A stretch of DNA of 64,000 nucleotides, from positions 824,001-888,000 of the forward strand of contig JAKOGI010000180.1 of assembly GCA_029747015.1 (NCBI GenBank). The letters are read 5' to 3'. The DNA comes from Carnegiea gigantea (taxonomy: Eukaryota; Streptophyta; Magnoliopsida; Caryophyllales; Cactaceae). Under the pieces are notes generated by a model. It did not search any database, had not been told where the DNA came from, and saw nothing but the letters and a program-made list of their open reading frames with translations. This document shows, in pieces, positions 3,374 through 34,550 of the stretch. Both the position numbers and the translations under genes were made by a program. Position 1 is the first letter of the stretch. Every line of letters begins with the position of its first letter.

Positions 3374-3381
3374 GATATGGG
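3374..3381. repeat. Left 8-bp target-site duplication of the viral palindrome
   Basis: GATATGGG directly precedes the terminal inverted repeat TAGGGGTGAGCAAAC and recurs exactly after the right terminus at 34543-34550. Eight-base duplications are the hallmark of hAT transposases. Confidence 0.85.
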
Positions 3382-3384
3382 TAG

Positions 3385-3860
3385 GGGTGAGCAAACGGTT
3401 AACCGCTTACGTGAAATTTTTGGTTTTATGTGATCTAATTATTAAGTTGTCCCGTAAAGTTGTGATTGTTTTGCAAGTTCCTTTATGGTGTTGGTTCTAA
3501 TTATTATTCTTCAGCCGTATGATATGTTAGGTGAGATTCTTTGCTGTTCATATTAGGCTGAATCCATAAAGTATATTCAAAAGTTACTTCTAACAGAGCA
3601 ATATTATCTTTTAATAAATTTATAGTTGTAGGATGGATTCGTTCGGGTATAGTTGATAAATGGTTTGATCTGTTCTTATAGTGATTTAATAAGTTTTGTC
3701 TAATACTTTTGGGAGTTAAATCAAAAGATCTTAAATAGTCCCATGCTCCTTCTTGCGTATAGTGTTTTAATTCTGGTAAATTAAAATTTTGTCATGCTAA
3801 ATAGTTACCATCTCTGTCTAATTTTGAGTTAAATTGTAATTTGTTTTTAAACAAATCCAT
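3385..3860 (-). pseudogene. Start of the first caulimovirid ORF after the primer site (truncated)
   Basis: An ATG on the minus strand at 3858-3860 lies about 40 bases downstream of the tRNA primer site in the viral sense direction and opens a reading frame that can be followed almost to the element end. It holds one in-frame stop within the first 30 codons (CGA in the other arm, TGA here) and more stops near 3500. The same frame opens in the right arm at 28213 and resumes at 34082 beyond the LINE. I recognise no domain. By position it would be the first ORF of the viral genome, cut off by the hAT-like terminus. Confidence 0.5.
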
Positions 3861-3900
3861 TATAGTTGTGATTAAGTGCAAAATTAGTTTTAAATGTAGG

Positions 3901-3912
3901 GCTCTGATACCA
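3901..3912 (-). other. Viral minus-strand primer binding site (tRNA-iMet), left arm
   Basis: On the minus strand this reads TGGTATCAGAGC, the perfect complement of the 3' end of plant initiator tRNA-Met, as used by Caulimoviridae for the start of reverse transcription. It sits about 0.5 kb downstream of the 35S-like promoter in viral sense. Confidence 0.85.
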
Positions 3913-4415
3913 TTAATAGTGAAACGAGTGGTTTTTTAGTGAAAAAAGTGGTAAAACTATTTTTTGAAATGTTAAAGTGATTCACATTATTTAATTTGAT
4001 AGGGGTCTGTCAAACTTTTAACAGTGGTACTCGGATACTAAATTGTCAAATAAAATTTCAAACTAACTATCATGGAATTCTATTAAAACAAAATTGAATA
4101 AAAGAAATTATACCTTCAAGAGTTGGATCTGTCTTACTCCTTCGAGCTTGTCTTACTCCACCTGATGCGAGACTTACCTACTCGTTCAGATGTTCTCCTT
4201 TCTCTTGATAATACTTTTTCTTTGATCAAAGTTGTAGTAACAGAATTGTAGATACTAAATTTTTTGAGAAAAGATTTTCCTTTTATTTCATTGATTATCG
4301 TTCTCCTTTCCCAAAAGGAGGAAATTAGAACATTTTGAGGGATTTCTTACAGAGAGATTTGAGGGAGTGTTTTTCTTTTTTATAAATACCGATGCCTTCT
4401 TCTGAAATTGGCTAC

Positions 4416-4462
4416 CTTATTTATAGGGAAAGGGGGTGCGCTATGACATAAGCGCTTATATC
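4416..4462 (-). promoter_or_regulatory. 35S-like pararetroviral promoter, left arm
   Basis: Reading leftward there is an as-1-like palindromic element at about 4443-4462 (ATATAAGCGCTTATGTC core), then about 20 bases on a TATA box CTATAAATA near 4416-4424. The order and spacing resemble the CaMV 35S core. It would drive transcription out through the left end of the element into the surrounding intron. Confidence 0.7.
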
Positions 4463-4637
4463 ATGGGAATCTGAAAAGATAAGATTTTCATTGAAAAGAT
4501 AAGATTTACAGATAAGATGTCCCTATTCTTGATAGAGTTGTTTGATGTCCCTTGTCGTATAGTGTCGGCAGAGATAAAAGTTGATAAAGTTGTACTCCCT
4601 TATGTCTCATATAGTGACAGAGTTAAGCAAGCTGAAT

Positions 4638-5716
4638 CTACTTTTCTTCTTTTTCTTTTTCGGCCTTGTAGAGGTCAGTAAACTTGGCGCGTACAGCTGT
4701 ACTGTCTAGAAACTTCTCGGGCTCAAGTGAATAGCTAAAGTCGAAAAGTTGTTCATCAACGGAGATGTTTTCTGCTCCATTAGTAGTAATGAGGATGAGA
4801 TTATCGCTATAATAAAGAGTTCTTGCTCCCTTGGTCATTAGCCTATCGCTTTGGCATTTGATAGCTAAAGCACCAGTAGACCGTTTATAGTGGATCCATG
4901 AGATGTCAAAAATGAAAAGTTTGTAGTGTTTATTTTTATCAGCTGCGATGGGCTATTTGAGATTGACATGAGTAATTTTGACCATATGGATGGAGGGATA
5001 AATAGTTTCTTCATCTTTTTCTGGGGAGATAGAAAAGAAGCGAAGGCAGACATATCTTTTGTTGATTTTTTTAATAGCATGCTTAAAGTTAACTGGGAAA
5101 TTTTAGAGCTCGATGAGGCTGAGGCTTGGGTAAAGATAATTTAAATAACCATAGGTAAAGAGTTCAAAGACAATATCAGGATTTACTTTGTTAAAAGCAA
5201 GTATTCTGGGAAAAAGAGAATCTCTTGAGTTATAGTAGAGTTTAGATAAACTAGAAATCCTCTGGTAAGCAAGCACTGTTGCTTCATAATATTTTTTATA
5301 AAAAGAGTTTGATAGATCAATAGTTCGGATGACAGTATTTTGAATAACTGGTCTGAAAGCTAATAGTTTAGCTTTTAATTGTTGCTTCTCTTTCTATTCT
5401 TCAGAGAGGGGTGCGAAGCGTTTTCCTGATTTGGTCGAAAGGAGAGTTCTGAGAGTTCAGATTGGACTTTTTACAAATCCATCTTAGAAGAGTTTAATTT
5501 GAGCTGTTCATTAGTTTGATGAAAATATTTTGTTAGTTCTCGAGTTTTTCCAAGATTGGCTTTGAGATCAACGACAATTTCCTCAATTAGTTCAATTTTC
5601 TCATTCACAGCTTCACAGTATTTATTAACAGTAATCAAAATGTCTTCAAACTTTTGAATCAGCTGTTCACTGTCGATTTGTGCCATAGGTGCTTTGCCTT
5701 TATCCTCTGAACTCAT
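4638..5716 (-). pseudogene. Caulimovirid transactivator-position ORF (TAV-like), left copy
   Basis: An ATG at 5714-5716 opens a frame that overlaps the end of the RNase H ORF by 17 bases. The first 81 residues are acidic and coiled-coil-like, rich in Glu, Lys and Leu heptads, up to a stop at 5471. Reading then continues in other frames (pieces about 4865-5400 and 4638-4838) to a Glu/Lys-rich tail. The position between the RT ORF and the promoter is that of the translation transactivator/viroplasmin gene in several caulimovirid genera. No diagnostic motif was recognised, so the function is positional inference. The same region in the right arm is 26394-27451. Confidence 0.55.
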
Positions 5717-7588
5717 GTTTTCGAGTTAGATAATCTGCAATAAAGTTGTTTTTTCCTGTAACATGCTCATATATTGCATTAAACTGAGATAAAAATAATT
5801 GTCATCGATACAATTTTCGCATGTGAGATCCATTATCTAAGGTTTGTTTTACAAAAGTAGTTGCTACTTGGTTATCTGTTAAAACTTTAAATGGTTTAGA
5901 TAGTAAAAGAGTCTCCATTTCGTAATTCTTCTAATAATTGCTAAGAGTTCCTTTTCTATAGTATTATAATTTTCTTCACGTTCGGAAAAAGTTCCTCTAT
6001 GATAACCATAAATTTTATTTAAATCTGTCTTTAAAACTGCTGCCCATATTTTATCAGAAGCATCTTTCGTAAAATTAAATTGTCATCAGGTTCAGGAAGC
6101 CTAAGGCTAGAGAGTTGTGAACATTTTTCTTTTAATTTTTTAACAATGTCCATATGTTTATCTGTTCAACCAAGAGTGTTGTTATTTTTTTGAGTAAACT
6201 TTGTAAATCTTTTTTCTTTTTTGCTAAATCTCGTATGTAAGAACTAGCATAGTTTAATATTCCTAAGAAACCTTGAATTTGTTTCTTTGTTCGCAGTTGG
6301 TCGGGATATTCTGTGATTTTTCGAGGGATATGTGGTTGTAAACTAATTCCATTTATACCAACTTCAAAGCCTAAAAATTCATTTTTTTCTTTTTCAATAA
6401 CGGCTTTCTTTTCACTAAGGGAAGTTCCTGCCAATTCCTTCTTTGATGATTGTCTCTAGAAATGTGTTGAGATGTTTTTCAAGAATATCTTAACTTATTA
6501 AGATATCATCTACATAGATAACAAGAAAGTTGTGAAGGTGTTTAAATGCATTGTCCATTCTTCTTTAAAAGATTCTTGGTGTGTTTTTTAGTCCAAAAGG
6601 CATAACAATCCATTCATAAAAACCTTGAGGAGTACTAAAACCTACGTATTTAATACTTGTTTCTTCCATTTTAATTTGCCAAAAGCCAGATTTGCAATCA
6701 AATTTTGAGAAGAACTTTTCGTTTTTTACAAGGTTAATTAATACTTCTTTGGTAGGTAGGAAATACTTATCTGTTTTTGTAAACTGATTTAGTTTGTTAT
6801 AATTTATAACCATTCTAGTCTTTCCTCTTCGTCGTTCTGCTTCATCAAATACCATAAAGGCTGGAGAAGAGTATGCTCCAATAGATGGCCTGATTAGTCC
6901 ATTTTTTAGTAATTCTTTTATTTGTATAGAAAATTCCTTGATGTCTTCTTCAGAGTACAAAATTGGTTTTTCTTTGATATATATTTCTTGTGTTAGTTCT
7001 ATTCTAGCTCTAGGATGTTCTGGTTTCCAGAATTGCAATGGATTTTCAGAACATATTCTTTTTAGTTTTGCTAATAGATCATCTTTCTTTATTATACTAA
7101 CCGTAAAGGTAGGTTTTTGGGCTTGTATTTGAAGTGTGATTTGTTCATAGCCATGTCTTCTATGCTTCGTGCGTATTCTGTATGGCTGTTTTAAAGTTGG
7201 AAATTTTTAAGGTGTGACCACATTTTGTAGTAAGATAAACGGTATACGGAGTTTGTGTAAATTTGGCAAATTGTTTAAGGAATTCATTTCCTAATAAGAT
7301 ATCAAAACCAGAGTTATATTGTAGAATAGTGGGTATAGTTAGAGTTTTGTTGCCTAATATGATGGAAACATTATTCTGAACCAAATCTAAATAGGTAGGA
7401 ATGGGATGAACACCTTTGATTCTAATTTTTCGATCAGATGGGAGTTTGGCCCATTTGGGAAGTAAAAAGTCCTGAAAGAAGGTAACTTCAGAACCTACGT
7501 CGATCAAAGCCGTCGTAGAGATGTCTAGCTCTTTGACAGTTACATCTATATAGGTAAGAATAGGTATTTCCAGTTGCTTCATAATCAT
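5700..7588 (-). pseudogene. Caulimovirid polymerase ORF: protease-like, reverse transcriptase, RNase H
   Basis: The start ATG at 7586-7588 overlaps the stop of the upstream ORF as ATGA. The first about 140 residues form a retroviral-type aspartic protease-like domain with D-V-G at 7493-7501 where D-T/S-G is expected, and a distal LLGNEFL-type strand. After a frameshift near 7155 the reverse transcriptase follows, with FDCKSGFWQI and GFYEWIVMPFGLKN signatures and the catalytic YVDD at 6505-6516. RNase H follows (about 5740-6110) with a TDNQ motif. The ORF ends with TAA at 5700-5702. Several frameshifts and stops make it non-coding today. Motif order and the GFWQI/PFGL signatures place it in Caulimoviridae rather than Ty3 elements. 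Confidence 0.85.
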
Positions 7589-8669
7589 TTAAGAATAATG
7601 GCAATGTGGTGATTGATGAGAGTTATGTGGGAAGGACCAATTTCATAGTTAGTATATTGGTCAAGGAAGTTCATACCTAAGAGTATATGGTAAAATTCAT
7701 TTTTTATAGAATGATCAATATAGCAATTAAATTCTAATAGAGTAGAATTAGGAGTTTTCAGCATTATCCTGGACATTTGATTTAGAGTTGCTCGTTGACC
7801 ATCATAGGTAACAAAGTTATATTCTAATGCTGATGAGACTGCTATGGGTAAATGTATACAATGGCTTTGTGATGCGCTTGTATCTATAAGGATTTTATTA
7901 GAGATCCATGTTTGTCCGTTAAAATAGTCTAATTTTACTTTGTAGGTCCTACTATGATTAGATGTTATTAATGGAGGTTTAAACCTGGGTATAGCTGTTG
8001 TACTATAGTTTCATGTCAAAACGGGTTGATTAGCTACTCGTATTCCTTTTTCTGTATAAGAAAGTCTAGGTGCTTGATAGCTAGTTGATACTTCATCTTC
8101 TTCAACTAATTGGAAGTCTGTTAATGCAGGTATTTTGGCTTCCTGCATAGGAGGAGAGATAATTGTACTGATGGATGAAAAGATTAGATCTATAGTTATT
8201 TTACCTGTTTGTTTTATATCTTTTATTGGAAAGTTGGTATTGGAAAAAAATGTATAAGCCTCTGTAATAAAAGGATAATGCATCATTTCTTGGTTGTAAT
8301 CTAATATCGGTTAAGAGTTTAAATTGCAAATTTAAAGTGTCTTCTATATTTTTACTTTGCAAAGTTACCAAGTAATTCAGATAGCAGTCAAAAATTAATT
8401 TTTTGTAAATTAGATTACCTTGTAATGTTTCTAGATGGCTGTTCTGGATGTTTCGAAATGTTTGATCATGTAATGATAAAATGATAGGTGAATTGATTCC
8501 TTCTTTAAAGCAAGCATTGACTGCAATTTGTATTCCTTGTAAATGTACATACCTAATTAGTTTTCTATCATTAGTGGGAATTTCTGCTAAGAATTTATCA
8601 ATTATTTCTTGAGTCATTAATCTTAATCGGATGTTTCCCTGTAAATGTTGAATTTTGACTGGTTGTTCT
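7585..8669 (-). pseudogene. Caulimovirid movement protein fused to a protease-like domain (3' part)
   Basis: This continues the ORF that starts at 12156, beyond the inserted solo LTR. Residues encoded at about 8290-8650 match the 30K movement-protein core by eye: a YVHLQGIQI-like strand, EGINSP, then hydrophobic strands. In the same frame after one TGA (8011-8013) comes a second domain with the ILIDTSASQ pattern (D-T-S at 7876-7884) and a distal ILLGMNFLDQY strand, the layout of a retropepsin fold. The ORF ends TGA at 7585-7587, overlapping the next ATG by the ATGA quartet. 30K proteins move virions or nucleic acid through plasmodesmata. A protease-like tail on one is not something I know as standard. 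Confidence 0.65.
8665..8669. repeat. Left TSD of the solo LTR
   Basis: GTTCT here and GTCCT at 11949-11953 flank the TGTAAC...TGTTACA unit; one base has since changed. Confidence 0.6.
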
Positions 8670-11600
8670 TGTAACGCCCCCAACCCTATGGCTAGGAGTG
8701 TTAGCGTTTTCCTTTAAATCCTAGAATGAAACGGACAGAATTTCCCCTAAAAATTGACCATTTCCCAGGTTTAAAGTCTTACAATGAATTCTCTGCACTT
8801 AAAAACCATAACACTAAAGGCTAACTAACTCAACGGCTCCCCGCCGGAGTTCACAGCTCTACGGGCCACCTGCCCGGAGCATCACAACCAGCGCAGTTCA
8901 ATGCTTAAACAAATGAACAATGAAAAGTACAGCCCTAGATAGTTTAGATGGTGGCTCACATGGCCATACAAAGCGACTCTGAATGATATGCAAAACATGC
9001 ACACAAAACTTGAATTACACAAGAATGAATTGTTACACCATGATACAGCTTCATAGCTCACATACAAGCTCATAGCTTTACTCTTAGGACACCAGGGACT
9101 CCATCTCTGCTTACGTGGATCGACTTTTACCTGTTGTTTCGGAAACCTGGGAAGGGAATAATAATAAATGGGAATGAGCAATTATCGCTCAGTGGTTAAC
9201 CCCTTTTCCTAAGACAATACTTTAAATGCAATAATAACTTACAACTACTATTCGTAATTCCCTCCCTTTGAAGAACTTACCGATCGTACAGTGTTCCAAT
9301 CACGATGCAAGAGAAATGGCCTTTGCACCACCCGCTTAAACTTGAAAGTAGCTATACTTAATAAACTTACCATGAGACATAAACTTACCATGAGACATTC
9401 ATATAACGCATAAACGCAATGAAAATAGAGGGGTTTAACCCGTAAATACCACTTACTGGGATATCTATTACGAAAATCACTAAAATTTTACATACATTGT
9501 TTCGTACATTACTAAGGCTTATTTCCGTACATATGATTGATGTCGTATATAATCATTAAACTTCATTAAAGATGATGTCAAGCAATAAGCTATATGAGTT
9601 TAGTAATGATATTAAAACCATCGTCATGCTCAATGTGATGAAATCACCACACCCATGATACCACTACCACATACAGCGACAAGTCATAAATAGGAGCAAA
9701 TTCCTTGTTACAACATGGAACAATAACCATATGGCGAAACAGATATTATGTCATGTGATTAGCAAGATCTCTACAGGCTTGTTGGCGAAACTGTAGGATA
9801 TATAAATTTTAAATTCTCTACCATCTGGTAGAACTATAGAACTGTAACACCATTGATGAACTATGAAATATCTGATAGGACTATACATATGAAACATTGA
9901 ACTTTGAATCATCCGTGCACTGGCAGAACTATGAACTCTGAACTTTGGAACTTCTACCTATTGCCAGAGCTATGAGCATTAAACTTTGGATCTTCTGCCT
10001 GTTAGCAAAACTATGAACTTTGAACATTTGAATCTTCTGCCTATTGGCAGAGTTATGAATATTAAACTTTGGATTTTCTACCTGTTGGCAGAACTATGAA
10101 CTTTGAACATTTGAATCTTCTGCCTCTTGGCAGAACTATGAAACACTGAACTCTGAAGTCTCTGCCCACTGTCAGAGCAACAAACACTGAACTTTGAAAC
10201 ATTGAAATTGAAGTGCCATGTAGACTTTAAAAGAAAATACTGGGTTGATTACGCTAAGAATCCAATTGATGCAATGTACCCTATGCTCATTACTCAATCT
10301 CATCGATCCGATGTTTTAGGGTTATTTCATTTCCGATGACTTGTCAATAAAAATATGCGACCGATAAAACATTTAGGAATGCTTATAAGTCAGGTAAATA
10401 AGCATTCATAACTATATCATGTCTATGCAAGCATTATAAACGATGAATACCTGTAATCAATGAACTATATATAATCGATAAACTAGTCGATAACTTTATA
10501 TAACCGACAAACTATATATAACAAAGAAACTACGTATAAATCAATAAACTTTAGGAAGTCATTAAACCACATATAAGTCGATAAGCTTTATATACTCAAT
10601 AAACTTTCTATATTCGATAACGATATATAGTCATTAAACTTGCTATGATTGATAATTTTTATATAATCGATAAGCTGTATATATAATTGCTAAACTTCAT
10701 ATGATCGATAGACTATATCTAATCACTAAACTTCATATAAATCAACAAATCACTAAACTTTATATAATCAATGAATCACTAAACTTCATAAATCGATGAA
10801 TTGATAAATTTTCTGTGCATCGATGAATCGCTAAACTTCATAAATCGATGAATCGATAAACTTCCTATGCATCGATGAATCGCTAAATTTCATATAAATC
10901 GATAAATCATTATAAAATCGAATAACTCTCATATAACCGATTATAATTCGATTAACTATATATATAATCAAATGCATTTCACATAATCGATAAACTATAT
11001 ATAATCGATAAACTTGTTCTATACAGTCAATATCTATATACTAAGCATCGTTCAGTTTACGCTATAATTTCCTCACGTCATAAATAATCAGTTCTAATTC
11101 AATCTGAACGAACTATAATGGATAAACTTTCATCAAAATTAACAATAAATAAGAGGAAGAGGAAGCCCACCTCGAATCCAAGCTAAAGGACCCGTTTTAG
11201 GGTTTGATTCGGGTTGGCTCGGTGTAGGTTTGGTTCCCCTTTGCTGCCCTGCTACTGCTTCCTCTTTCTCTGCTCCTCTTGCCATCTCTGCTCGCCGCTA
11301 GCAACCCCAGGAGGAGCCGTCGAGGAGAGGCACGCGACCTTCTCCCACCGGTCATGCTCTCCTTCTTTTGCTGACCCTGCCTCTCTCTCTGGCCCCGCTT
11401 GGGCGTCGACTGGGGTGGGGACGGCCAGGCGCGCGTCGGCCGGTCGTCGGCGACGCCATCGGTGCCTCCCTCCCCCTCTCTTGGCGTGTGTATGCGTGGC
11501 ACAGGGCAGGGGGTCGAGAACCCCCCTCTCACGATCCTTCTCTGCCCGAAGAGAAGGGGCTTCGGCCCCTTTAAATTTTTTTTTTCTTTTGTTTTGTCCA

Positions 11601-11948
11601 CTGATAATAATACCAACCCACTGTACCATAAATCCAATTTTCCGACCTCCAAATCTTAAACCGTAACCATTATTATAATCATCGGTCGATTAGTCACCTT
11701 TCGATTATATTAAGGTTCGATTCAATAAATTGCAGGATGATTCCCAAAGTTCGACATTCTAGTCGTATTTGGGAATCTGCTCAATGTAGTGCCCGATAAT
11801 AATCCTTAATACTAATAAAACTAATAATAATGAGAATACTAATATTCTTTTCAGTAAAATCAGCACTCAGGCAGGCTTCGTCGATATTAGTTCAATTTAT
11901 AATGATATGAATCGGCTTATCGAAGGGGATAAAATTCCGGGTGTTACA
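8670..11948 (-). mobile_element. Solo LTR of the 3.2-kb-LTR family
   Basis: On the minus strand it begins TGTAACACCCGG and ends GGGGGCGTTACA, the same termini as the two LTRs of the complete element at 12429-22426. It carries the same internal landmarks in opposite orientation: a GC-rich block (about 11230-11570), ATCGAT/TATATGAAG tandem repeats (about 10700-10930) and the TGCC..GGCAG hairpin repeats (about 9930-10180). No internal region or second LTR adjoins it, and near-identical 5-base flanks (GTTCT/GTCCT) support unequal LTR recombination. It interrupts the viral movement-protein ORF. Confidence 0.85.
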
Positions 11949-12156
11949 GTCCTGTAGTGTAAAGCTTAAAATTTCTTATTAATTTTCGTGTTAGAAAATA
12001 TCTAGTTTTTTCATAAAATTTCGAGGGTCTTTTATAGATAAATCAGTTGCTATAATTTTTTCATAAAGTTTCTGGCTGAAAGTAATTATTCCGGCATAGT
12101 TTTCATTACTTTCTTGTTCTTGTTGCTCCATGATTTCAGTTTCGTCAATATTCATC
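11949..12156 (-). pseudogene. Caulimovirid movement-protein ORF, N-terminal part
   Basis: The ATG at 12154-12156 lies inside the end of the coat ORF, whose TGA is at 12146-12148, so the two overlap by 11 bases in different frames. The N-terminal stretch is Glu/Gln-rich, then runs into a frame with later stops before the solo LTR at 11948. Translation of the same ORF resumes at 8669. Confidence 0.6.
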
Positions 12157-12428
12157 TACTGTGTCTGAATAACTTTCAGTTTCTGAAGTACTCGTTTCAT
12201 TTTCAGAGCTAATAGATTCATAACAGTTTGAAATTACTTCATTTATGTTAATGTTTATTCGATAAAGTTCAGTTTGTATTTCTTCAAATTCTTCTGAAAA
12301 GAGTTTCACTATATTTGCCTTTCTCTTGTTACAATCAATTGATCTATGTTCAATTTCTCCACAGTTCCAACATTGACAAGAAGTTGGTTTCTTACTCCAT
12401 TTGTACTATCAATTTTGTGGATTATAAT
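12146..12428 (-). pseudogene. Caulimovirid coat protein C-terminus with zinc knuckle
   Basis: On the minus strand, 12331-12377 encodes a CxCx2Cx4Hx4C knuckle (CQCWNCGEIEHRSIDC), the coat-protein nucleic-acid-binding motif diagnostic of Caulimoviridae. It is followed by a Ser/Glu/Thr-rich acidic tail ending in TGA at 12146-12148. The upstream part of the coat ORF is displaced to 22432 and beyond by the LARD inserted at 12429. Confidence 0.8.
12424..12428. repeat. Left TSD of the LARD-like element
   Basis: ATAAT here and at 22427-22431 directly flank TGTAAC...ATTACA. Confidence 0.85.
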
Positions 12429-13439
12429 TGTAACACCCGGGATTTTATCTCCTTCGTTAAGCCGATTCATGTCGTTATAAATTGAACTAATATCGATGAA
12501 GTCTGCCCGAGTGTTGATTTTATTGAAAGGAATAGTAGTATTCTGATTATTATCAGTTTTATTGGTATTAAGGATTTTTATCAGGCATTACATTGAGCAG
12601 ATTTCCGAATACGACTAGAATGTCGAACCGTGGGAACTATCCTGCAATCTATTGAATCGAACCTTAATATAATCAAAAGGCGAATAATCGACCGATGATT
12701 ATATTAATGGTTACAGTTTAAGATTTGGAGGTCGGAAAATTTGGATTTAGGGTACAGTGGGTTGGTGTTATTATCAGTTAGCATCAAGAACAAAAGAAAA
12801 AGGAAAAAGGAAAAAAAAATTAAAAAGGGGCCGAAGCCCCCTTCTTTTCGGCAGAAGGGTCCCGAAGAGAGGAGGGGGGCTCCCAGCCACGACACACACC
12901 GGGAGAGGGCCAGGGAGGCACCGGCATGGCCGCCGGCGACCAGCCGACGCACGCCCGGCCGTCCCTCTCCCCGGTCGACGCCCAATTTGAGCAGAAAGAG
13001 AGGCGGGTGCGAGAGAAGGGAGCCCTGGTCAAGGTTTCGGGACCCCGACCCCAGGCGACCGCCACCAGCGTGGCCACCCTCGCCGGATGCCGGTGACATA
13101 GTGGCAAGTAGAGTGGGCAGCGAAAGAGAAAGGTAGCGGCAGAGCAAGGGAATGGACCGAGCTAACCCAAATCAGACCCTAAAACGGGTCCTTTAGCTTG
13201 GATTCAAGGTGGGTTTCCTCTTTCTCCTATTTATTATTAATTTCGACGACAGTTTATCGATTATAGTTCGTTCAGGTTGAATTGGAAAGTGTAGCGTAAA
13301 CTAAACGACGCCTAGTATATCTATATTGATCGTATTGAACAAGTTTATCGATTATATATAGTTTATCGCTTATGTGAAATGTATTCGATTATATATATAG
13401 TTTATCGAGTTATAATCGATTATATGAAGGTTATTCGAT

Positions 13440-15643: not shown

Positions 15644-15655
15644 TGGTATCAGAGC
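15644..15655 (+). other. Primer binding site of the LARD-like element (tRNA-iMet)
   Basis: TGGTATCAGAGC begins two bases after the 5' LTR end, exactly where a retrotransposon primer site belongs. Confidence 0.9.
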
Positions 15656-24287: not shown

Positions 24288-24397
24288 TACTAGTTTAATA
24301 GAGTTATTTATTTCTCTAATTTCTTCTTTAATAGCTTTTAGTTCGTTTCTAGTTGTGAAAAGCTCATTATTTATTAATCTTCATCATTAAACTAGAA

Positions 24398-24860
24398 TTA
24401 TGTATCAAACTGATCTAAGTTGTTATCATCGTTGTTATCTATATTTTCACAAATTTCTAAATAAGTTCTTCGTTCTTCTTCATAGATTAAGAGATCTAGT
24501 TTATCTTCATTTAACAAAATTATCTCTTTAGAGCTATTAGTTTTTCTTAGACATTCAATTTTTTGTATATAAAATTTTTCATTTTGTAATATTTCTCTTT
24601 TCGAAAAAATTTTATATAAACTGAGAATAGATTCATAGTTTCTCTGAGTCATTATTTTTAGTTTAGGAATTTCAGGTTTTTCCATTATGCTAAAAAATTT
24701 TCTCAAGTAGATAAATTTCCATAAGTCGGTTAATTATAGTTATTATTTTTAATTCAAAAATTAAACAGTTATTTTTGTTTTGACATAAATATTTCAGCAA
24801 ATGTAACAAATCTGTATCACCATAAATTCCTTCTTCAAGTTCAAGCTTAATTCTAAGTCA
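24398..24860 (-). pseudogene. Viral ORF upstream of the coat protein (unrecognised)
   Basis: A Lys/Glu/Ile-rich frame of about 100 residues (24398-24706) and another open stretch further upstream (24720-24860) read leftward toward the coat gene. They end at stops before 24287. No domain was recognised; in viral order this could be the end of the first ORF or the coat precursor's N-terminus. Confidence 0.4.
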
Positions 24861-24951
24861 TTCATGAGTAAAATTTTGTGTAAAAGGCTTATTTGCTCCT
24901 TAGCCCTCAAAGTTTTCCAAAATTGCAAGGAAAGTCCGTCCATACTATGGA
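24861..24951. other. Centre junction of the viral palindrome
   Basis: About 90 bases separate the left-reading unit (coat side) from the right-reading unit, which begins abruptly inside the protease-RT linker at about 24952. This short piece matches neither arm, and I see no gene in it. Confidence 0.5.
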
Positions 24952-26410
24952 TTGGACACGGCTATGAGCAAATCACACTTCAAATACAAGCTCAAAAACC
25001 TACCTTTACGGTTAATATAATAAAGAAAGATGATCTTTTAGCAAAACTAAAAAGAATATGTTCTGAAAATCCATTGCAATTCTGGAAACCAGAACATCCT
25101 AAAGCTAAAATAGAACTAACACAAGAAATATATATCAAAGAAAAACCAATGTTGTACTCTGAAGAAGACATCAAGGAATTTTCTATACAAATAAAAGAAT
25201 TACTAGAAAAAGGACTAATGAGGCCATCTAATTGAGCATACTCTTCTCCAACTTTTGTGGTATTCAATGAAGCAGAACGATGAAGAGGAAAGGCTGGAAT
25301 GGTTATAAATTATAAAAAACTAAATCAGTTTACAAAAACAGATGACTATTCCCTACCTAACAAAGAAGTATTAATTAACCTTGTAAAAAACAAAAAGTTC
25401 TTCTCAAAATTTGATTGCAAATCTGGCTTTTGGCAAATTAAAATGGAAGAAACAAGTATTAAATATATAGGTTTTAGTACTCCTCAAGGTTTTTATGAAT
25501 GGATTGTTATGCCTTTTGGACTAAAAACACACCAAGAATCTTTCAAAGAAGAATGAACAATGCATTTAAACACCTTCACAACTTTCTTGTTATCTATGTA
25601 GAAGATATCTTAATAAGTTAAGATACTCTTAAAGAACATTGAGAACATCTTAACACATTTCTAGAGACAGCCATCAAAGAAGGAATTTGCCTTAGTGAAA
25701 AGAAAATCGTTATTGAAAAAGAAAAAATTGGATTTTTAGGCTTTAAAATTGGCATAAATGGAATTAGTTTACAACCACATATCCCTTGAAAAATCACAGA
25801 ATATCCCAACCAACTGCGAACAAAGAAACAAATTCAAGGTTTCTTAGGACTATTAAACTATGCTAGTTCTTGCATACTAAATTTAGCAAAAAAGAAAAAA
25901 GATTTACAAAGTTTACTTAGAAAAAACAACACTCTTGGTTGGACAGATAAACATACGGACATTGTTAAAAAATTAAAAGAAGAATGTTCACAACTCCCTA
26001 GCCTTAGGCTTCCTAAACTTGATGACAATTTAATTTTACAAACAGATGCTTCTGATAAAACATAGGCAGCAGTTTTAAAGATAGATTTAAATGAAATTTG
26101 TGGTTATCGTAGTAGAACTTTTTCCGAAGGTGAAGAAAATTATAATACTATGGAAAAAGAACTCTTAGCAATTATTAGAGGAATTACGAAATGTAGACTC
26201 TTTTTACTACCTAAACCATTTAAAGTTTTAACAGATAATCAAGCAGCAACTACTTTTGTAAAACAAACCTTAGATAATGGACCTCACATGTGAAAATTGC
26301 ATCGATAGCAATTATTTTTATCTCAGTTTAATGCAATATATGAGCATGTTGCAGGAAAAAACAACTTTATTGCAGATTATCTAACTCGAGAATATGAGTT
26401 TAGAGGATAA
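24952..26410 (+). pseudogene. Caulimovirid reverse transcriptase-RNase H, right copy
   Basis: Homologous to 5700-7154 on the other strand. It begins within the protease-RT linker, so no protease is present. The RT carries FDCKSGFWQI and the EWIVMPFGL signature, but the active site reads YVED (25595-25606) instead of YVDD. A TGA at 25233-25235, further stops and a frameshift near 25560 break the frame. RNase H follows with TDNQ, ending TAA at 26408-26410. Confidence 0.85.
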
Positions 26411-27451
26411 AGGCAAAGCACCTATGGAACAAATCGACAGTGAACAGCTGATTCGAAAGTTTGAAGACATTTTGATTACTGTTAATGAATACTGTGAAGC
26501 TGTGAATGAGAAAATTGAACTAATTGAGAAAATTGTCGTTGATCTCAGAGCCGATCTTGGAAAAGCTCGAGAACTAACAATATATTTCCATCAAACTATT
26601 GAACAACTCAAATTGAACTCTTCTAAGATGGATTTGAAAAAAGTTCAATCTGAACTCTCATAATTCTCCTTTTGACCAAATCAGGGAAACGCTTCACACC
26701 CACTCTCTGAAGAAGAGAAAGAGAAGCAACAATTAAAAGCTAAACTATTAGTTTCAAAACCAGTTATTCAAAATACTGGCATCCGAACTATTGATCTATC
26801 AGACTCGTGCTTGCTTACCAGAGAATTTCTGGTTTACCTGAACTCTACTATAACCCAAGAGATTCTCTTTTTTCTAGAATACTTGCTTTTAATAAAGCAA
26901 ATCCTGATATTGTCTTTAAACTCTTTACCTAGGGTTATTTCAATTATCTTTACCCAAGTCTCAGCCTTATCGAGCTCCAAAATTTCCCAGTTAACTTTAA
27001 GCATGCTATTAAAAAAATCAACAAAGGATATGTCTGCCTTCGCTTCTTTTCTATCTCCCCTGAAAAAGATGAAGAAACTATTTATCCCTCCATCCATATG
27101 GTCGAAATTACTCATGTCAATCCCAAATAGCCCATCGCAGCTGATAAAAATAAACACTACAAACTTTTCATTTTTGACATCTCATGGATCCACTATAAAC
27201 GGTCTACTGGTGCTTTAGCTATCAAATGCCAAAGCGATAGGCTAATGACCAAAGGAGCAAGAACTCTTTATTATAACGATAATCTCATCCTCATTACTAC
27301 TAATGGAGTAGAAAACGTCTCCGTTGATGAACAACTTTTCGACTTTAGCTATTCACTTGAGCCCAAGAAGTTTCTAGACAGTACAGCTGTACGAGCCAAG
27401 TTTACTGACCTCTACAAGGCCGAAAAAGAAAAAGAAGAAAAACAGATTTAG
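26394..27451 (+). pseudogene. Caulimovirid transactivator-position ORF, right copy
   Basis: The ATG at 26394 overlaps the RNase H end by 17 bases. An 89-residue Glu/Leu-rich frame runs to 26663; further coding text continues in other frames to a Lys/Glu-rich tail with a stop at 27449-27451. Same layout as 4638-5716 on the opposite strand, with at least one frameshift and one extra stop around 26930. Function is by position only. Confidence 0.55.
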
Positions 27452-27619
27452 CTTGCTTAACTCTGTCACTATGTGAGACACAAGGGACCATATCTTTATC
27501 AACTTTTATCTCTGCCGCCACTACACGACAAGGGACATCAAACAACTCTATCAAGAATAGGGACATCTTATCTGTAAATCTTATCTTTTCAATGAAAATC
27601 TTATCTTTTCAGATTCCCA

Positions 27620-27665
27620 TGATGTAAGCGCTTATGTCATAGCGCACCCCCTTCCCCTATAAATA
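27620..27665 (+). promoter_or_regulatory. 35S-like pararetroviral promoter, right arm
   Basis: TGATGTAAGCGCTTATGTCA (27620-27639) is an as-1-like palindrome, followed 18 bases later by TATAAATA (27658-27665). The counterpart in the left arm is at 4416-4462. The two promoters face away from each other. Confidence 0.7.
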
Positions 27666-28160
27666 AGGTAGCCGATTTCAAAAGAAGGCATCGGCATTTG
27701 TAAAAAAGAAAAACACTCCCTTAAATCTCTCTGTAAGAAATTTCTCAAAATGTTCTAATTTCCTCCCTTTGGGAAAGGAGAATGATTATCAATGAAATAA
27801 AAGGAAAATCTTTCCTCAAAAAACTTTGTATCTATAGTTCTGTTACTATAACTTTAATAAAAGAAACAGTATTATCAAGGGAAAGGAAAAGGTCTGAATG
27901 AGTAGATAAGTCTCGCATCAGATGGAGTACGATGAGCTCGAATGAGTAAGACAGATCCAACTCTTAAAAGTATAATTTCTTTGATTCAATTTTGTTTTAA
28001 TAGAACTGCATGATATTTAGTTTGAAATTTCATTTGATAATTTAGTATCCGAGTGCCACTGTTAAAAGTTTGACAAACCCCTATCAAATTAAATAGTGTG
28101 AATCACTTCAACAATTCAAAAACCGCTTTTTCCATAAAAAACCACTCGTTTCACTATTAA

Positions 28161-28172
28161 TGATATCAGAGC
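28161..28172 (+). other. Viral primer binding site, right arm
   Basis: TGATATCAGAGC, one base away from the tRNA-iMet complement, at the same viral position as 3901-3912. Confidence 0.75.
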
Positions 28173-28230
28173 CCTACATTTGAAACTAATCTTGAATTTA
28201 ATCAAAACTATAATGGATTTGTTTAAAAAC

Positions 28231-28248
28231 AAATTACAATCTAACTCA
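28231..28248. repeat. Left TSD of the LINE in the viral right arm
   Basis: AAATTACAATCTAACTCA recurs at 34082-34099 after the poly(A) tail, giving a 15-18 bp duplication (the A run makes its edge uncertain). Confidence 0.85.
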
Positions 28249-29930
28249 CCCATTACAGATGTTGAACCCTCTAGTGAGAGGACAGAGCATCTAGAGAGAG
28301 AAGAAACCCTAAATTGCTTTCCTTTGTTTCTGAAAATGAAACCAAAACCAAAAAAGTCCTCTTCTATTCAGCTTGAAACCTCTGGTTTATCCCTTAATTG
28401 AACCTCATCTAATGACCTCTATGAAATCTACTATTCGCTATTCCCTTAGCTATTTCTCTTCTATCCCAGTTCTGTCCTCTCATGTCTATCCTGCTTCTTC
28501 GCAAGGACATCTGATTGTTTCCTTCACCACACCTGCTGCAAAGGGTCCCGAATTTGCTGCTTTTATGATTAGTATCGGTGGCTTTACGAGCTGCTCTGCC
28601 CGGTCGAATGTCTCATCTACCATATTTGGACTTACTGTGTCTAGATCTACTTCACTTTGGAGTCGACGCATCAGGTACTACAGCTATTTGGATGAGGCAA
28701 ACTTCAGGTTGCAAGACAGTATGTTCCAAAATGAACTCTTTCAGAGGTTGGCCGGTTGTTGTGATGACACTATGGCAGCTCAGATCTATGACTGTGGAAC
28801 TTCAGGGACATTGATTCTTCGAATTCCAGATCATCAGTTCGTAGCCGTTCATATCTGCAAATTGCTCAAAAACCTGGATCGAAGGACGTTGGCTCCAGGG
28901 ACTCTCTTCTCATGTATCGCTCTGACGTTTACACGGGGCTGGAGGCGGAAGCTCATAAAGTGACGTTTCGAATCTTTCGAGACAATGGCGCTTTAAGGTT
29001 ATGTGTTAGCAAGATAAGTCCTTTTTTCTTCTTTGCACTTTGGCGCCCTCCCTTTTTCTACTGTGAATTGCTAGAGTTCAGATCTATATTTGTGAATGAT
29101 AAGCCCAACTTGAATATTGCTTGTCTGAAATTCCATCTCATAGAAATCGTAGCTCGAAATATTGAAATCTGTGGTTGTAGATGGCATTTGATTGCAATTG
29201 TTTGCAACCTCATTGACACTGTATTAACTATAATCATGTTTCCTGGTTGCCTTGCTCTAATCTATACTCTCACTACGGTTTTAGTACGCCCTTTGTCTAG
29301 GCTTGGATTTATGTTCTTGCCTTCCTTTTAGGTACATTTCTGAGCCATTGCGTATTAATTCACTCTTGTGTTCATTTTGCTAACGTAATCTCCTGCCCAT
29401 GTATGATGCAGGAGATGGAGATTTGTATTTTCATTTCCAAATCATCTTTAGAGAAGTACCCTTTTCGGGACTGGACCTTTATTTTTGTTATTAATATTGT
29501 AATAAGTATTAAACTTGAAAAGTTGACATTCGAAAAACCATTTTATTGTGCAACTATTATTTGCTTTCGGAGGTCATTGCGCTCCTGTATGTTTGACAAA
29601 GATGCCAACACATTTGCTCTCGGTCGTAATGCCCATATGCAAATTTGGCATTTTGGCTTAGTCTCAACTGACGTTGACTTATGGTTGATTTTGTACATTA
29701 GTACTTATATTTTTCACTGCATTTGTTTATGTTTTCTATTTCGCTCTGAGTTTTGGGGGAATGTGGAAAATCCCTTTTGGTTTTTCTTGCTAGCCAGCCT
29801 TCTAAGGCTTAAGAATGACCGAACACGGTCCCAGAATGCTTTATGCAGGCTATTTGCACGTCGTATGTCATTAATGATGTCACGTACGGACAGGTTCCCG
29901 ATGGACGGGGATATTTCAAAGTTAGTTTTT
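28249..29930 (+). other. 5' region of the LINE, unrecognised
   Basis: Open pieces (28373-28963, 28912-29331, 29403-29936) contain no DUF4283, RRM or zinc knuckle that I can see, though this is where a plant L1 would carry ORF1. It could be a very diverged ORF1, a 5' UTR or transduced sequence. Confidence 0.4.
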
Positions 29931-29937
29931 TCATAAA

Positions 29938-32900
29938 AGTTAAAAAAACGCAGGTTGTTCAAGAAGTGAAGTTCCTGGCAAGAGCTTATAAGCCTGATAT
30001 GCTGTTTCTATTAGAAACTATAATTAATGAATCAAATATATGACGGATTCTTCCCCTAATGGGATTTGATCATTTTGACTTTGTTTCACCAGTTAATCAC
30101 TCTGGCGGCATAGCTGTTCTTTGGAATAACGGAAATATTCAGGTTCCAGTCTTACTAAAAGAAACAAGAGCTATTCATATGTTAATTCATGACCCAGATA
30201 AGGTGCAAAATTCTGTTATTTCAGGAATTTATACACCGACACAAACTAGAGATAAAAATGATTTTTGGAATCATTTTGTTGAGCTTAATAATGTTATCGA
30301 TTTACCTTGGTGTCTAATAGGCGACTTCAATGAAATATTGTGTCCTAATGAAAAATTAGGAGGCCAACCTCCTGCTACTACTAGATTTCATCGTTTAAAT
30401 AACTTTTTATCTGCCATTAATGCTGAATGTGTTCAAGTATCAGGACGGCTATTTACTTGGAAAAAGAAGATCCACACTCACCTTATTTATGAAAGATTGG
30501 ATAGAACTATTATTAGAAAAGATTGGAGTCCCTGTACCCTAATGCTTACGAAACACATGGTATCTTCTCTTGCTCTGATCATTGTCCTATTATTATGTCT
30601 ACTCAAGCTCATATATACCAAAAGCTAAGGCTTTTCCCTTTCGGTTTCAAAATTTTTGAATGAAATCTCAAGATGTTGATGTTATTATCTCTAGAAATTG
30701 GCGATATAACCACTATGGAACCAGTATGTATAGAGTTATGCAGAAACTAAGATGTGTTAAGCATGATGTTAAAGATTGGTCCAAAAGATACTTTGGGAAT
30801 TTCAATGATAAACTGAGCAAGAACGTGGTTAAAATAGATTATGTGGAGGAGAGACTGATAGCTAATCCTAACAGTCATAGATTTAACTCCTGGATGCAAC
30901 GATTATTGAAACAACGAGAGAAAATGATGTTGTTCAGCCAAAAATATTGGGGGAAGTTAGCACGAAAAGAATGGTTAGTAAACGGTGATAGAAATTCTAA
31001 GTTCTTTCAAAATAAGGTTAATGCTAGAAGGCAGAGGAAGTTAGTTATGAAATTACAGGATGATTGTGGCATTTGGATTGATGACCACAACATGATTGCT
31101 GAGAAATCCATTTCAAATTATAAGCATAGATTCAAATCCACGCATCACAATGCCAGAGTATTATCGAATTTAGGGCTATCGAAATTAATTTCAGACCTCG
31201 ATAATAATGAGCTTATTAAACTTTCAAATTTAGAAGAGATTAAAACTGCCTTATTTAGCATTGATTCTAATAAGACACTAGGACCAGATGGTTTTGGTGC
31301 AGGTTGCTTTAAGAACTACTGGGAAATCATCAAGAAGGATCTTTATAACTGTATACTTGAATTCTTCTTAAATGGCAAAATCCTTAAAGAGATTAACCAT
31401 ACCTTTCTCGCTCTTATTCCGAAATCAAATAATCCTTCATAAACTAGTCATTACAGGCCCATAAGTTTATGTTCTATGATTTATAAAATTATTTCGAAAA
31501 AAGTAGTTAATAGGTTGAGACCTCTACTAGACCGTATAATTTCTCATTTCCAAAGTGCCCTTGTACCAGGTAGATCTATTCATGATAATATTCTGCTAAC
31601 ATATGAAATTATACACAAATTTAAGAACCTTAAAACTAAGACTGCTTGGACAGCTATTAAATTAGACATGGATAAAGCATACAAAAGAGTCGAATGGGAT
31701 TTTATATTAAAATGTTTTCGAGAGCTAGGTTTCCATCCCACTTAAAACTCATGGATTAAACAATGCATCTCTTCAGTTTCGTACTCAATCATTGTTAATG
31801 ATGAACCTAATGGCCTTTTTATCCTGACAAGAGGGACTAGACAAGGAAATCCTCTTTCCCCCTATTTATTTATTATTTGTATGGAAGTCTTAAACAATAT
31901 GCTTCTAAAAGAAGCTAATGCCCCAAGGTCTGGAATAGGAGTTAAGATCTGCCCCTCGTCTGTCAAAATTCCATGCCTACTTTTTGCCGACGATTGCCTA
32001 TTGTTTTGCAAAACTAATTTAGGAAGTTGTACTAAACTAAAACGCATCCTTGACTTCTTCTCTTTAACTTCAGGATAATTAGTCAATTATCATAAATCTG
32101 CATTGACTTTCTTACGTAATGCGACTAATACACAACAGCAACTAGTGACTGCAATATTCAATATTCCGCATAGAGAGTCGCTGGGCAAATATCTAGGATG
32201 CCTTGTTTTCCAGGGTCGGCCTTCTTACTCAACTTTCCAAGAGCAACTACAAAATTAGAAGGCTGGAAAGCAAACTGTTTGTCTAAAGCAGGTAGAACAA
32301 TTCTCATACAATCACATTTAGATTCACTACCAGCACATACAATGCAATGTTTTGAGTTACCATCAAGTACTAGCAAATATCTAGACAAACATAATAGAGA
32401 ATTCTTCTGGAAAAAGTCCAACACAGAAAAAGGTCTCCCACTTATATCATGGGATAAGGTTTGTAGGCCTAAAAGCAAAGGCCAGTTGGGGTTGCAGAAA
32501 ACAAAATCTGTCAATAAGGCCTTTCAGTGTAAATTGACCTGGAAAATACTTACTAATGTTCTTAGTCTTTGGGTACAATCTATGCGGGCCAAGTACCTAC
32601 GTTCTACAAATCTATTTTGCTGTACACGAAAAAATACGGATTCGCCAGTTTGGAAAAGCATACTGAAATGCAGGGCTCTTTTACAAAAGGGTATTATCTG
32701 AAAAATAGGCAAAGGGAATGAGATCTCCTTTTGGTTTGATAAAGGAATTGAAAACAGAAATTTAGTTGAGATATTGGGTGTGTCCGAAGACAGTGTTGCC
32801 CACCTTGAAGTCAAAGTTTGCAAGTTTATTCGGGATAACTTAGAATGGGATGTCCCCAAACTAAGACAATTCCTCAATAATCATCATGTTATACAAAAGA

Positions 32901-33861
32901 TTCAGGGTATCACCATACCCATCCATGAAACTAGTGACTCCTTTTGTTGGGGGTCAAATAGCACGGGTAACTTCACCACAAAATCAACTACATGGGCAGC
33001 TCATGACTTCCAAGTGCATAACTTATCACCTTCGTCATACAAATGGATTTGAATGTTGATACCTTGCCTAAAATCAAAGTTCTTCTTTGGCAGCTTTGCC
33101 ATAAATCCTTACCTGTAAGAGGTATTCTTCTTAAAAGGGGGCTTAATATCAACCCAGCTTGCCCACTCTGCCTAGGTGATATTGTGTCCATAGAACATCT
33201 CTTCAAAGATTGCCAAACGATCAAAAAAGTTTGGGATCTAGCAGCAAAACATCAATGGCTTCCATCTGTCTTTTCTCCTGCCGGATGCCAGGATTTTTTA
33301 CATTAGACGAACAAGATACATTCTTCCCACAATCCAAAATTGGAACAAAAATTCTCATTTATCTTGTGGAGTATTTGGAAATCTAAGAATGCAACAGTTT
33401 TCAATAATGAAATTTTCAATCCTGTTGCATGCCTAATTCGAGCCAAAAAAGCTTATGCAAAGTGGAGAATCCGAACTTGTATGTCGGTTGATCATTTTAT
33501 TAGGGGACCTTCTTCTCCTCCTACTCCCTCCCTTCATATGGTTAGGTGGCATCCCCCATCACCAGGATTCGTCAAACTCAATTTTGATGGATCCCTCATC
33601 AGCCCATCAGCAGCAGGAGGCTTCATCATTTGGGATTGGACGGGAAAACTTCTAAAGACAGGGGCGAGCTATTACGGTGATACATCTAGTTTAGTTGCAG
33701 AAGCGAGAGCATTACAAGACAGACTACGAGTAGCAATTCAGGCAGGATTCAAAAATATAGCTATTGAAGGTGATAATAAGATAGTGATTCAAGCACTGAA
33801 AGGAAAGATCCAAATTCCTTGGCAAATATCAAATATTATCAAAGACATACATATCTGGTAG
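29938..33861 (+). pseudogene. LINE ORF2: endonuclease, reverse transcriptase, zf-RVT, RNase H
   Basis: The endonuclease begins near 29938 (LLETIINES), with GGIAVLWNN, GDFNEIL and a YERLDR motif through 30628. The RT begins with LGPDGFGAGCFKNYW and continues with YRPISLCSMIYKIISK, LVPGRSIHDNILL, KLDMDKAYKRVEW, TRQGNPLSPYLFII and the catalytic FADD at about 31985. The zf-RVT has CPLCLGDIVSIEHLFKDC. The RNase H has KLNFDGSL, AEARAL and IEGDNK motifs. At least six stops and several frameshifts interrupt it. The C-terminal RNase H places it among plant L1 elements of that type. Confidence 0.85.
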
Positions 33862-34099
33862 ACTCAAAGTATCAATTTACTCATCACCCACATTTTCAGG
33901 GAAACAAATATGGCAGCTGATTGGCTTTCCAAGTTTGGACACTCGGTTACAACGTCCTCTTCGAACTCTTGTTTTCCTCCTGCTCTTAGGGTTATTTTGG
34001 CAGATGATGTAGTTGGGCGTACTCTTGTCAGAAAAGGCGCTTAACACCCCCTTTTGGTTCTATTTACCCTTGTTAAAAAAAAAATTACAATCTAACTCA

Positions 34100-34542
34100 A
34101 AATTAGACAGAGATGATAACGATTTAGCACGACAAAGTTTTAATTTACCAGAACTAAAACACTATACGCAAGAAGGAGCATGAGACTATTTAAGATATTT
34201 TGATTTAACTCCCAGAAGTATTACACAAAACTTATTAAATCACTATAAGAAAAGATTAAACTGTTTATCAACCATACCCGAATGAGTCCATCCCATAACT
34301 ATAAATTTATTGAAAGATAATATTGTTATGTTAGAAGTAACTTTTGAATATACTTTATGGATTCAACCAAATATGAACAGTAAAGATTCTCAAATAACAT
34401 ATTCTACAGACAAAGAAGAATAATTAGAACCAACACCATAAAGGAACTTGCAAAACAATTACAACTTTACGAGACAACTTAGTAATTAGTTCACATAAAA
34501 CCAAAAATTTCACGTGACCGGTTAACAGTTTGCTCACCCCTA
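34100..34542 (+). pseudogene. First viral ORF, right arm, continuation and truncated end
   Basis: This is the continuation of the frame opening at 28213, separated by the LINE. Two Trp-to-TGA type changes are visible (near 34172 and 34284). The frame runs nearly to the terminal repeat, and the sequence stops being viral only within about 25 bases of the hAT-like end. The same viral coordinate ends the left arm. Confidence 0.5.
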
Positions 34543-34550
34543 GATATGGG
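34543..34550. repeat. Right 8-bp target-site duplication of the viral palindrome
   Basis: GATATGGG, identical to 3374-3381. Confidence 0.85.

What the first reader, a model, noticed from the sequence alone, without database searches (positions are those of the whole stretch)
3374..34550. A caulimovirid genome folded into a 31-kb palindrome with hAT-type ends and a perfect 8-bp duplication
Both outer ends are the 15-mer TAGGGGTGAGCAAAC in inverted orientation, flanked by GATATGGG on both sides. Right up to within about 25 bases of each end the sequence is viral and identical in order, so both arms stop at the same viral coordinate. Random viral integration by end joining would not give an 8-bp duplication with hAT-like termini. 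This suggests that pararetroviral DNA became cargo, or even the inverted repeats, of a hAT-mobilised unit. I know of no standard description of such a structure.
Basis: partly seen in the sequence, partly recalled or inferred. Interest (0 to 1): 0.92.

Follow-up and report, generated by a model that had tools for sequence, protein, structure and literature searches.

The report
Palindromic plant virus with transposon ends
In this plant genome a family of decayed reverse-transcribing viruses sits in the chromosomes as mirror-image double copies with inverted end repeats and the 8-base duplication that hAT cut-and-paste transposons leave, so a host hAT transposase likely inserted them, which would answer how such viruses can enter plant genomes.

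Summary
The ends are real: inverted 15-bp repeats at 3382 and 34542, each touching GATATGGG. The 31-kb span is inflated by three nested retroelements; about 12 kb remain: one nearly complete caulimovirid copy and a truncated inverted copy, joined head to head at 24939-24951. It is not unique. Eight of 10 other fetched loci with the same end carry the same virus from that end; both ends were found in seven, and all seven have an 8-bp duplication (six perfect, one 7/8). Over 16 end pairs, 11 match at 7-8 of 8 bases, two at 6, three show none. Empty paralogous sites align ungapped across the window junction. The two arms of each element are sisters (8 of 8) and differ evenly over codon positions, while differences between elements favour third positions: each insertion began as a near-identical mirror dimer of a lineage under selection, though a few lesions are shared by both arms. 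The end motif seems native to the viral circle. Best reading: a host hAT transposase cut the circle at its single end, the flank hairpin gave the dimer, and the dimer was inserted. Transposase-type insertion is strongly supported; the hairpin step is inferred.

The parts
3374..3381 (.). target-site duplication, left copy GATATGGG
   Evidence: empty sites
34543..34550 (.). target-site duplication, right copy GATATGGG
3382..3396 (+). terminal inverted repeat TAGGGGTGAGCAAAC, left end
34528..34542 (-). terminal inverted repeat TAGGGGTGAGCAAAC, right end
3382..7157 (-). left inverted arm (viral sense on minus strand: RT, RNase H, ORF2, primer site, leader, end)
24955..28248 (+). right inverted arm, inner part (RT, RNase H, ORF2, primer site)
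34070..34542 (+). right inverted arm, outer part (leader and end) beyond the LINE
   Evidence: 91% to the left end
3901..3912 (-). primer-site-like TGGTATCAGAGC of the left viral copy, about 0.53 kb from the end (that this is the tRNA-Met primer site is recalled)
   Evidence: exact 12-mer
28161..28172 (+). the same site in the right viral copy, one mismatch
6565..7206 (-). reverse transcriptase fragment (RVT_1 1.7e-12)
5879..6082 (-). RNase H fragment (RT_RNaseH 1.1e-10)
7160..7588 (-). aspartic protease fragment (Peptidase_A3 2.1e-12)
8201..8713 (-). frame with movement protein fragment (MP 3.6e-22); from 8670 on it lies in the solo LTR
12145..12405 (-). zinc-knuckle part of the coat protein (zf-CCHC 20.7 bits, cut-off 20.8)
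22432..24944 (-). coat-protein region and 5' start of the left viral copy (coat domain PF22909 seen in the homologous frame L051:7448-8047, 4.3e-5, 24.3 bits, cut-off 27); 22832-23387 is about 410 bp longer than in other copies
25284..25556 (+). reverse transcriptase fragment of the right copy (RVT_1 6.8e-11)
25790..26293 (+). RNase H fragments of the right copy (RT_RNaseH 5.2e-15)
26676..27218 (+). fragment in the ORF2 region, no Pfam match; the homologous 302-aa frame in C34 has 10 relatives in the protein database
24939..24951 (.). head-to-head centre TCCATA-C-TATGGA, odd palindrome with one central base
28248..34081 (+). nested LINE (RVT_3 domain, weak endonuclease trace, A-rich tail, 17-bp duplication), later insertion
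12429..22426 (+). nested LTR retrotransposon (two 3.2-kb LTRs, primer-site-like 12-mer at 15644, duplication ATAAT), later insertion
8670..11948 (-). nested solo LTR (duplication GTTCT/GTCCT), later insertion

Best explanation
This is one of at least 11 chromosomal copies of a plant pararetrovirus lineage with opposed hAT-type ends and 8-bp target duplications, eight of them mapped as head-to-head inverted and mostly truncated dimers, likely inserted by a host hAT transposase that is predicted to have cut the viral DNA circle at one built-in transposon end and left a hairpin from which the dimer would have been made. Steps shown: ends, duplications, empty site, inverted-dimer architecture at many loci, arms that differ neutrally within an element, selection on viral genes between elements. 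Steps inferred: (1) the end motif lies in the circular viral genome about 0.53 kb downstream of the primer site, just before the coat-protein side (two loci show it uncut); (2) hAT cleavage at this single end leaves a free 3'-OH on the leader side and a closed hairpin on the other side, as hAT enzymes do; (3) copying or joining through the hairpin gives a mirror dimer with an end at both outer sides and a one-base centre; (4) the transposase, supplied in trans by the host, inserts the dimer. After insertion the centre tends to lose sequence, giving the asymmetric copies seen today.
For: Same exact end plus same virus at 8 of 10 fetched loci; both ends found in 7 of these 8, and 7 of 7 have 8-bp duplications, six perfect and one 7/8, all different. 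Window: perfect. Eight further pairs: 8/8, 7/8, 7/8, 6/8, 6/8, none in 3. Empty sites: 39 of 39 other scored matches to the joined flanks span the junction (232 candidates), ungapped in 8 of 8 fetched. Arms of each element are sisters in 8 of 8 pairs. Differences between the two arms of an element by codon position 241/196/196; columns that vary between elements with both arms agreeing 73/67/217, p = 5e-27. In the RT and ORF2 frames 45 stops are private to one arm and two isolated ones are shared. 20 head-to-head centres in the listing, two of them near-identical. Centre C84 is a nearly perfect odd palindrome TTCCATA-C-TGTGGAA; window and C1370 keep TCCATA-S-TATGGA. hAT enzymes leave hairpins on the flanking DNA and a free 3'-OH on the transposon end (passages of PMC4763223). 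The genome holds many hAT transposase domains (150 of 150 scored above cut-off, 1536 candidates), and a non-viral 549-bp element at C40 has the same 15-bp end on one side, a looser one on the other, and a perfect 8-bp duplication.
Against: Some lesions are shared by both arms and by no other element: a stop in the window's RT frame, a one-base insertion in C1370 RT, a one-base insertion in C498 ORF2; C858 shares a stop at a site where other copies also have TGA. So the dimerised genome was not always intact, or the arms were homogenised later, or the sequence sat in the chromosome for a time before it was doubled. No transposase was found in the frames scanned, and none has been shown to bind these ends. 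Of 16 end pairs C655 has no duplication (1/8), and C806 and C2141 have an end that I could not recognise; the far end of C1089 was not found in 30 kb. C1505 counted 5/8 at first, with the ends misplaced, and 7/8 after placing them by arm alignment. The native position of the end motif rests on two rearranged loci. The 13-base centre motif lies within 2 mismatches in only 8 of 33 centre pieces (shuffled mean 0.12, but half of the motif is native sequence, so that control is lenient; two of the 8 are near-identical and run into TA repeats); C696, C729 and C492 have mirror centres at other points. The one-base offset of hAT cleavage is recalled, not read.
Confidence: 0.62

Rival explanations
1. 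A host, non-autonomous hAT transposon once captured a viral genome and has since spread only as a DNA transposon, the virus being dead cargo.
For: Ends, duplications and empty site are those of a DNA transposon; the same end occurs on a non-viral 549-bp element at C40; a few lesions are shared by both arms of an element, as if it had decayed before it was doubled.
Against: Dead cargo should diverge evenly over codon positions, but differences fixed before insertion fall 73/67/217; arms are sisters in 8 of 8 pairs; 45 stops are private against 2 isolated shared ones. The end motif differs between viral subfamilies (TAGGGGTGAGC, TAGGGGTGTTC, TAGGGGTGGC, TAGAGGTGYC) while the virus beside it stays homologous.
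Confidence: 0.18
2. The mirror dimer is made by viral or repair processes (template switching, or head-to-head end joining of linear viral DNA), and hAT transposase only inserts it.
For: Several centres lie at other points (C696, C729, C492); a published caulimovirid locus is head to head (cotton, PMC10458927, passages).
Against: At the better preserved centres (window, C84, C1370, C858, C651) the mirror point is the base next to the end motif, as a flank hairpin would give.
Confidence: 0.18
3. Viral DNA integrated by end joining, and the ends and duplications are coincidence.
For: This is one of the two widely held hypotheses for endogenous caulimovirids (PMC10377300 section 3.1).
Against: 11 of 16 end pairs match at 7 or 8 of 8 bases against 0.21% for random pairs.
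Confidence: 0.01
4. The virus integrated inside an older hAT miniature element, which lends its ends and its duplication.
For: A miniature element with this end exists (C40).
Against: Viral sequence stops at the same viral coordinate on both sides in all seven elements with both ends mapped and in the window, at different loci with different duplications.
Confidence: 0.01

Closest known systems
Endogenous caulimovirids (florendoviruses and relatives; PMC10377300, PMC4241990)
   Same: Decayed plant pararetrovirus copies in nuclear chromosomes, with coat, movement, protease, RT and RNase H genes and a second ORF of unknown function (passages)
   Different: The review gives end joining or LTR-retrotransposon help as the two widely held mechanisms, often at TA repeats (section 3.1 read). 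In the florendovirus paper a text search found inverted, target site and transposase 0 times (not otherwise read). Here there are defined ends and 8-bp duplications.
eCPRVE of upland cotton (PMC10458927)
   Same: A 15-kb locus with two caulimovirid copies head to head, 98.98% identical (passages)
   Different: One locus; the terms inverted and transpos occur 0 times in the text; no end motif or duplication in the passages seen.
hAT transposons (Ac/Ds, Hermes, Kat1)
   Same: Short inverted ends, 8-bp duplications; the enzymes leave hairpins on the flanking DNA (passages)
   Different: The body is a pararetrovirus, the termini are kilobase inverted repeats, and no transposase was found in the frames scanned.
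Teratorn (PMC10175614)
   Same: A virus genome bounded by DNA-transposon ends (passages)
   Different: Herpesvirus plus piggyBac, and it encodes its transposase; a mirror dimer is not mentioned in the passages seen.
Inverted-repeat caulimovirid loci that feed siRNA in tomato and soybean (cited in PMC10377300)
   Same: Caulimovirid copies in inverted orientation
   Different: Described as rearranged loci; no transposon ends in the passage that I read.

Membership tests
Caulimoviridae (endogenous) | RT and RNase H of caulimovirid type | tested here: met
   RVT_1 and RT_RNaseH in both arms; best PDB chain 8r0s_A, 3.2e-46
Caulimoviridae (endogenous) | Movement protein and Peptidase_A3 | tested here: met
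   PF01107 3.6e-22; PF02160 2.1e-12
Caulimoviridae (endogenous) | Coat protein with zinc knuckle | tested here: inconclusive
   zf-CCHC 20.7 bits against a cut-off of 20.8; coat domain 24.3 against 27
Caulimoviridae (endogenous) | tRNA-Met primer site | tested here: inconclusive
   Exact 12-mer at 3901-3912 and one mismatch at the homologous 28161-28172; at up to 2 mismatches the window has 6 matches against 3.9 expected
Florendovirus | Position in an RT phylogeny | not tested
   Genus left open; no named reference set was aligned
hAT superfamily element | 8-bp target-site duplication | tested here: met
   Of 16 end pairs 8 perfect, 3 at 7/8, 2 at 6/8, 3 none
hAT superfamily element | Short terminal inverted repeats of hAT type | tested here: met
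   15-bp repeat here; TAGRGGTG ends in subfamilies; that TAGGGGTG is hAT-like is recalled
hAT superfamily element | Encodes a hAT transposase (autonomous member) | tested here: not met
   No transposase domain in the frames scanned; not every frame was scanned
hAT superfamily element | Ends are cut by a hAT transposase | not testable with these tools
   Needs an excision assay
Ordinary dead-cargo hAT element | Neutral evolution of cargo between copies | tested here: not met
   73/67/217 by codon position

The most novel reading that the evidence does not exclude
A pararetrovirus lineage carries a hAT transposon end inside its own circular genome and uses the host's hAT transposases as its integrase: one-ended cleavage leaves a hairpin-capped linear genome, which becomes a mirror dimer with two proper ends and is then inserted like a transposon. 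The virus has become, in effect, a DNA transposon without a transposase, and its end motif has changed between lineages as if tracking different host hAT families.
Probability: 0.47. Interest if true: 0.95.

Novelty: categorically new. Interest (0 to 1): 0.92.

Why it matters
A review calls the integration mechanism of endogenous caulimovirids speculative (PMC10377300), and another says that the mechanism of integration and propagation of endogenous pararetroviruses is unknown (PMC10175614, passage). Here a defined end, a defined duplication size, a recurrent mirror centre and a large natural sample make the question testable. It could also explain head-to-head caulimovirid loci and inverted-repeat loci that feed antiviral small RNAs, allow insertions to be dated through arm divergence, and show a virus using a host transposase as integrase.

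Tried and rejected
Viral contigs: an RT-fragment search of IMG/VR confirmed no relative; 27 contigs hold the 15-mer, and blastn of window 3382-7157, 3382-8669 and 22432-24954 against these 27 loci found nothing. Structure of ORF2: AlphaFold2 pLDDT 39.9, of no use. Rfam: nothing at gathering threshold. Snap-back priming at an internal site as the origin of asymmetric copies was considered and dropped: the second copy continues in its own sense after the centre, as a deletion would leave it (inference). My first codon frame for the 3' part of ORF2 was wrong: one search showed a second-position excess there, and repeats the count with open frames of C34; by sub-window the third-position excess holds in 8 of 9, and not in the last one. 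Exact 15-mer sites at C617 and C1963 have no virus within the fetched 20 kb, and C40 is a 549-bp non-viral element.


Full report
Observation. Self-comparison shows inverted arms 3382-7157 against 24955-28248 and 34070-34542. Three later insertions account for most of the span: a LINE with a 17-bp duplication, an LTR retrotransposon with TGTAAC...TTACA LTRs and ATAAT duplication, and an inverted solo LTR with a 5-bp duplication differing at one base. The LTRs of the nested element differ by K2P 0.052, the arms by 0.065 (inner) and 0.100 (outer 473 bp), so the order of events is consistent.

Contents. In viral sense the left copy runs on the minus strand: coat-protein side, zinc knuckle, movement protein, protease, RT, RNase H, ORF2, primer-like site, leader, end. 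Evidence per piece is; the coat domain and the zinc knuckle are below their curated cut-offs, and the primer motif is not above chance when mismatches are allowed. ORF2 has no Pfam family above cut-off but 10 database relatives at 62-85% identity. Genus was not determined.

A family. The own genome (1.13 Gb, unnamed) holds 14 exact end motifs against 2 for the reversed control. These are the two window ends, two at C498 (one internal), six at C34, C241, C341, C778, C858 and C1370, one at C1089, and three without virus (C40, C617, C1963). I fetched 20 kb at 10 loci; 8 of 10 carry the virus from the motif inwards, then an inverted, mostly truncated copy. Both ends were found in 7 of these 8, lengths 7.9 to 16.2 kb, duplications GGTTGAAG, TTTATGAT, CTTACAAG/CTTATAAG, CCCATGTG, AAAGGAAT, ATATCAGC, CTACTATC. 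The far ends were placed by homology to the arm terminus, not by looking for duplications. C1089's far end was not found in 30 kb. A 519-bp terminal query gave 461 candidates, 40 scored; 25 of 40 matches start within 5 bases of the terminus and 15 at 33-90. Of 20 ends fetched, 16 lie within 4 mismatches of the 15-mer; C1505 has TAGAGGTGYCAATTC; the two ends of C806 were not recognised. Duplications in eight further pairs: C14 8/8, C156 7/8, C1505 7/8 (5/8 before its ends were re-placed by arm alignment), C651 6/8, C1089b 6/8, C655 none, C806 and C2141 none with unrecognised ends.

Empty site. The window flanks belong to a dispersed repeat. Joined with one GATATGGG they match 39 other places among 40 scored rows (232 candidates), and 39 of 39 span the junction. 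In 8 of 8 fetched the alignment is ungapped through the junction; the 8-mer there is GACATGGG in 3, and fits GATATGGG at 6 of 8 in 3, 5 in one and 3 in one.

Timing and selection. A tree of 17 arms pairs both arms of each element in 8 of 8 cases. With frames taken from open frames of C34, differences between two arms of one element are 241/196/196 by codon position (p = 0.04, a first-position excess), while columns that vary between elements with both arms agreeing are 73/67/217 (p = 5e-27; contrast p = 6e-19). In the window alone the arms differ 41/42/39 by position, with 28 synonymous to 84 non-synonymous single-difference codons. Stops in these frames: 45 private to one arm; shared by both arms, one in the window's RT, one in C858's RT at a site where other copies also have TGA, and a TAG near the 3' end of ORF2 in four elements that most other copies have too. 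Two one-base insertions are shared by both arms and by no other row, in C1370 RT and C498 ORF2. So each insertion started as two nearly identical arms with nearly intact genes, and the lineage between insertions was under purifying selection, as for a replicating virus. The few shared lesions leave room for defective genomes, later homogenisation of the arms, or a chromosomal stage before doubling.

Centre and origin of the dimer. A 255-bp query from the centre side gave 60 matches, with 20 head-to-head pairs side by side, two of them near-identical. C84 keeps TTCCATA-C-TGTGGAAGGAC, the window and C1370 keep TCCATA, one base, TATGGA, and C858 and C651 keep 4-5 bases of the second half; in C858 these bases are also native to the second copy. 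At C498 and C303 the end motif lies directly against the same start (TATGGA side), uncut, in C303 followed by leader positions up to 284 before a rearrangement. If that is the native order, a hAT cut at the motif would leave a hairpin on exactly this side. Published work on Kat1 shows hairpin-capped flanks and free 3'-OH transposon ends (passages of PMC4763223). The one-base stagger is recalled. Of 33 centre pieces only 8 carry the 13-base motif within 2 mismatches, so many centres have been lost or were made otherwise.

Literature. The listings of the searches showed no title or abstract describing hAT ends or 8-bp duplications on caulimovirids; only open-access papers are held. Four papers hold both Caulimoviridae and target site duplication (listing only). 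CAULIFINDER reports no TE-caulimovirid chimeras in a test run (passage of PMC9719215). The nearest published structure found is the cotton head-to-head locus (passages).

Verdict. Transposase-type insertion of mirror-dimer pararetroviruses is strongly supported; that the enzyme is a host hAT transposase is likely; the hairpin route to the dimer is the best current inference.

Noticed in passing
window 35493-40885: Copia LTR retrotransposon on the minus strand, LTRs 97% alike, just right of the element.
   Followed up: no
window 55088-59439: Remains of a LINE-like element on the minus strand (RVT_1, DUF4283).
   Followed up: no
window 22832-23387: About 410 bp more than in the other copies within the coat-protein region, probably another small insertion.
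   Followed up: no
L060, L061, L064-L069: Viral subfamilies end in different TAGRGGTG motifs (TAGGGGTGTTC, TAGGGGTGGC, TAGAGGTGYC), as if the end had been exchanged or adapted.
   Followed up: partly
L029 (C40), 549 bp from 1501: Non-viral element with the same 15-bp end and a perfect 8-bp duplication CTTTCCTC.
   Followed up: partly
L105 (C3412), L107 (C194): The viral start runs directly into a TA repeat, and the two loci are near-identical.
   Followed up: no
L090 (C696), L088 (C729), L089 (C492): Mirror centres at other points further inside the viral start, unexplained.
   Followed up: no
P0001-P0010: Close relatives of ORF2 (62-85%) on short contigs of public data sets; whether from plants or free virus is unknown.
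   Followed up: no
window 3301-3381 and 34551-34620: The insertion site is a dispersed repeat with many paralogues.
   Followed up: partly
window arms, RT frame; C1370 and C498 arms: A few lesions are shared by both arms of an element and by no other copy, which suggests that they predate the doubling.
   Followed up: partly
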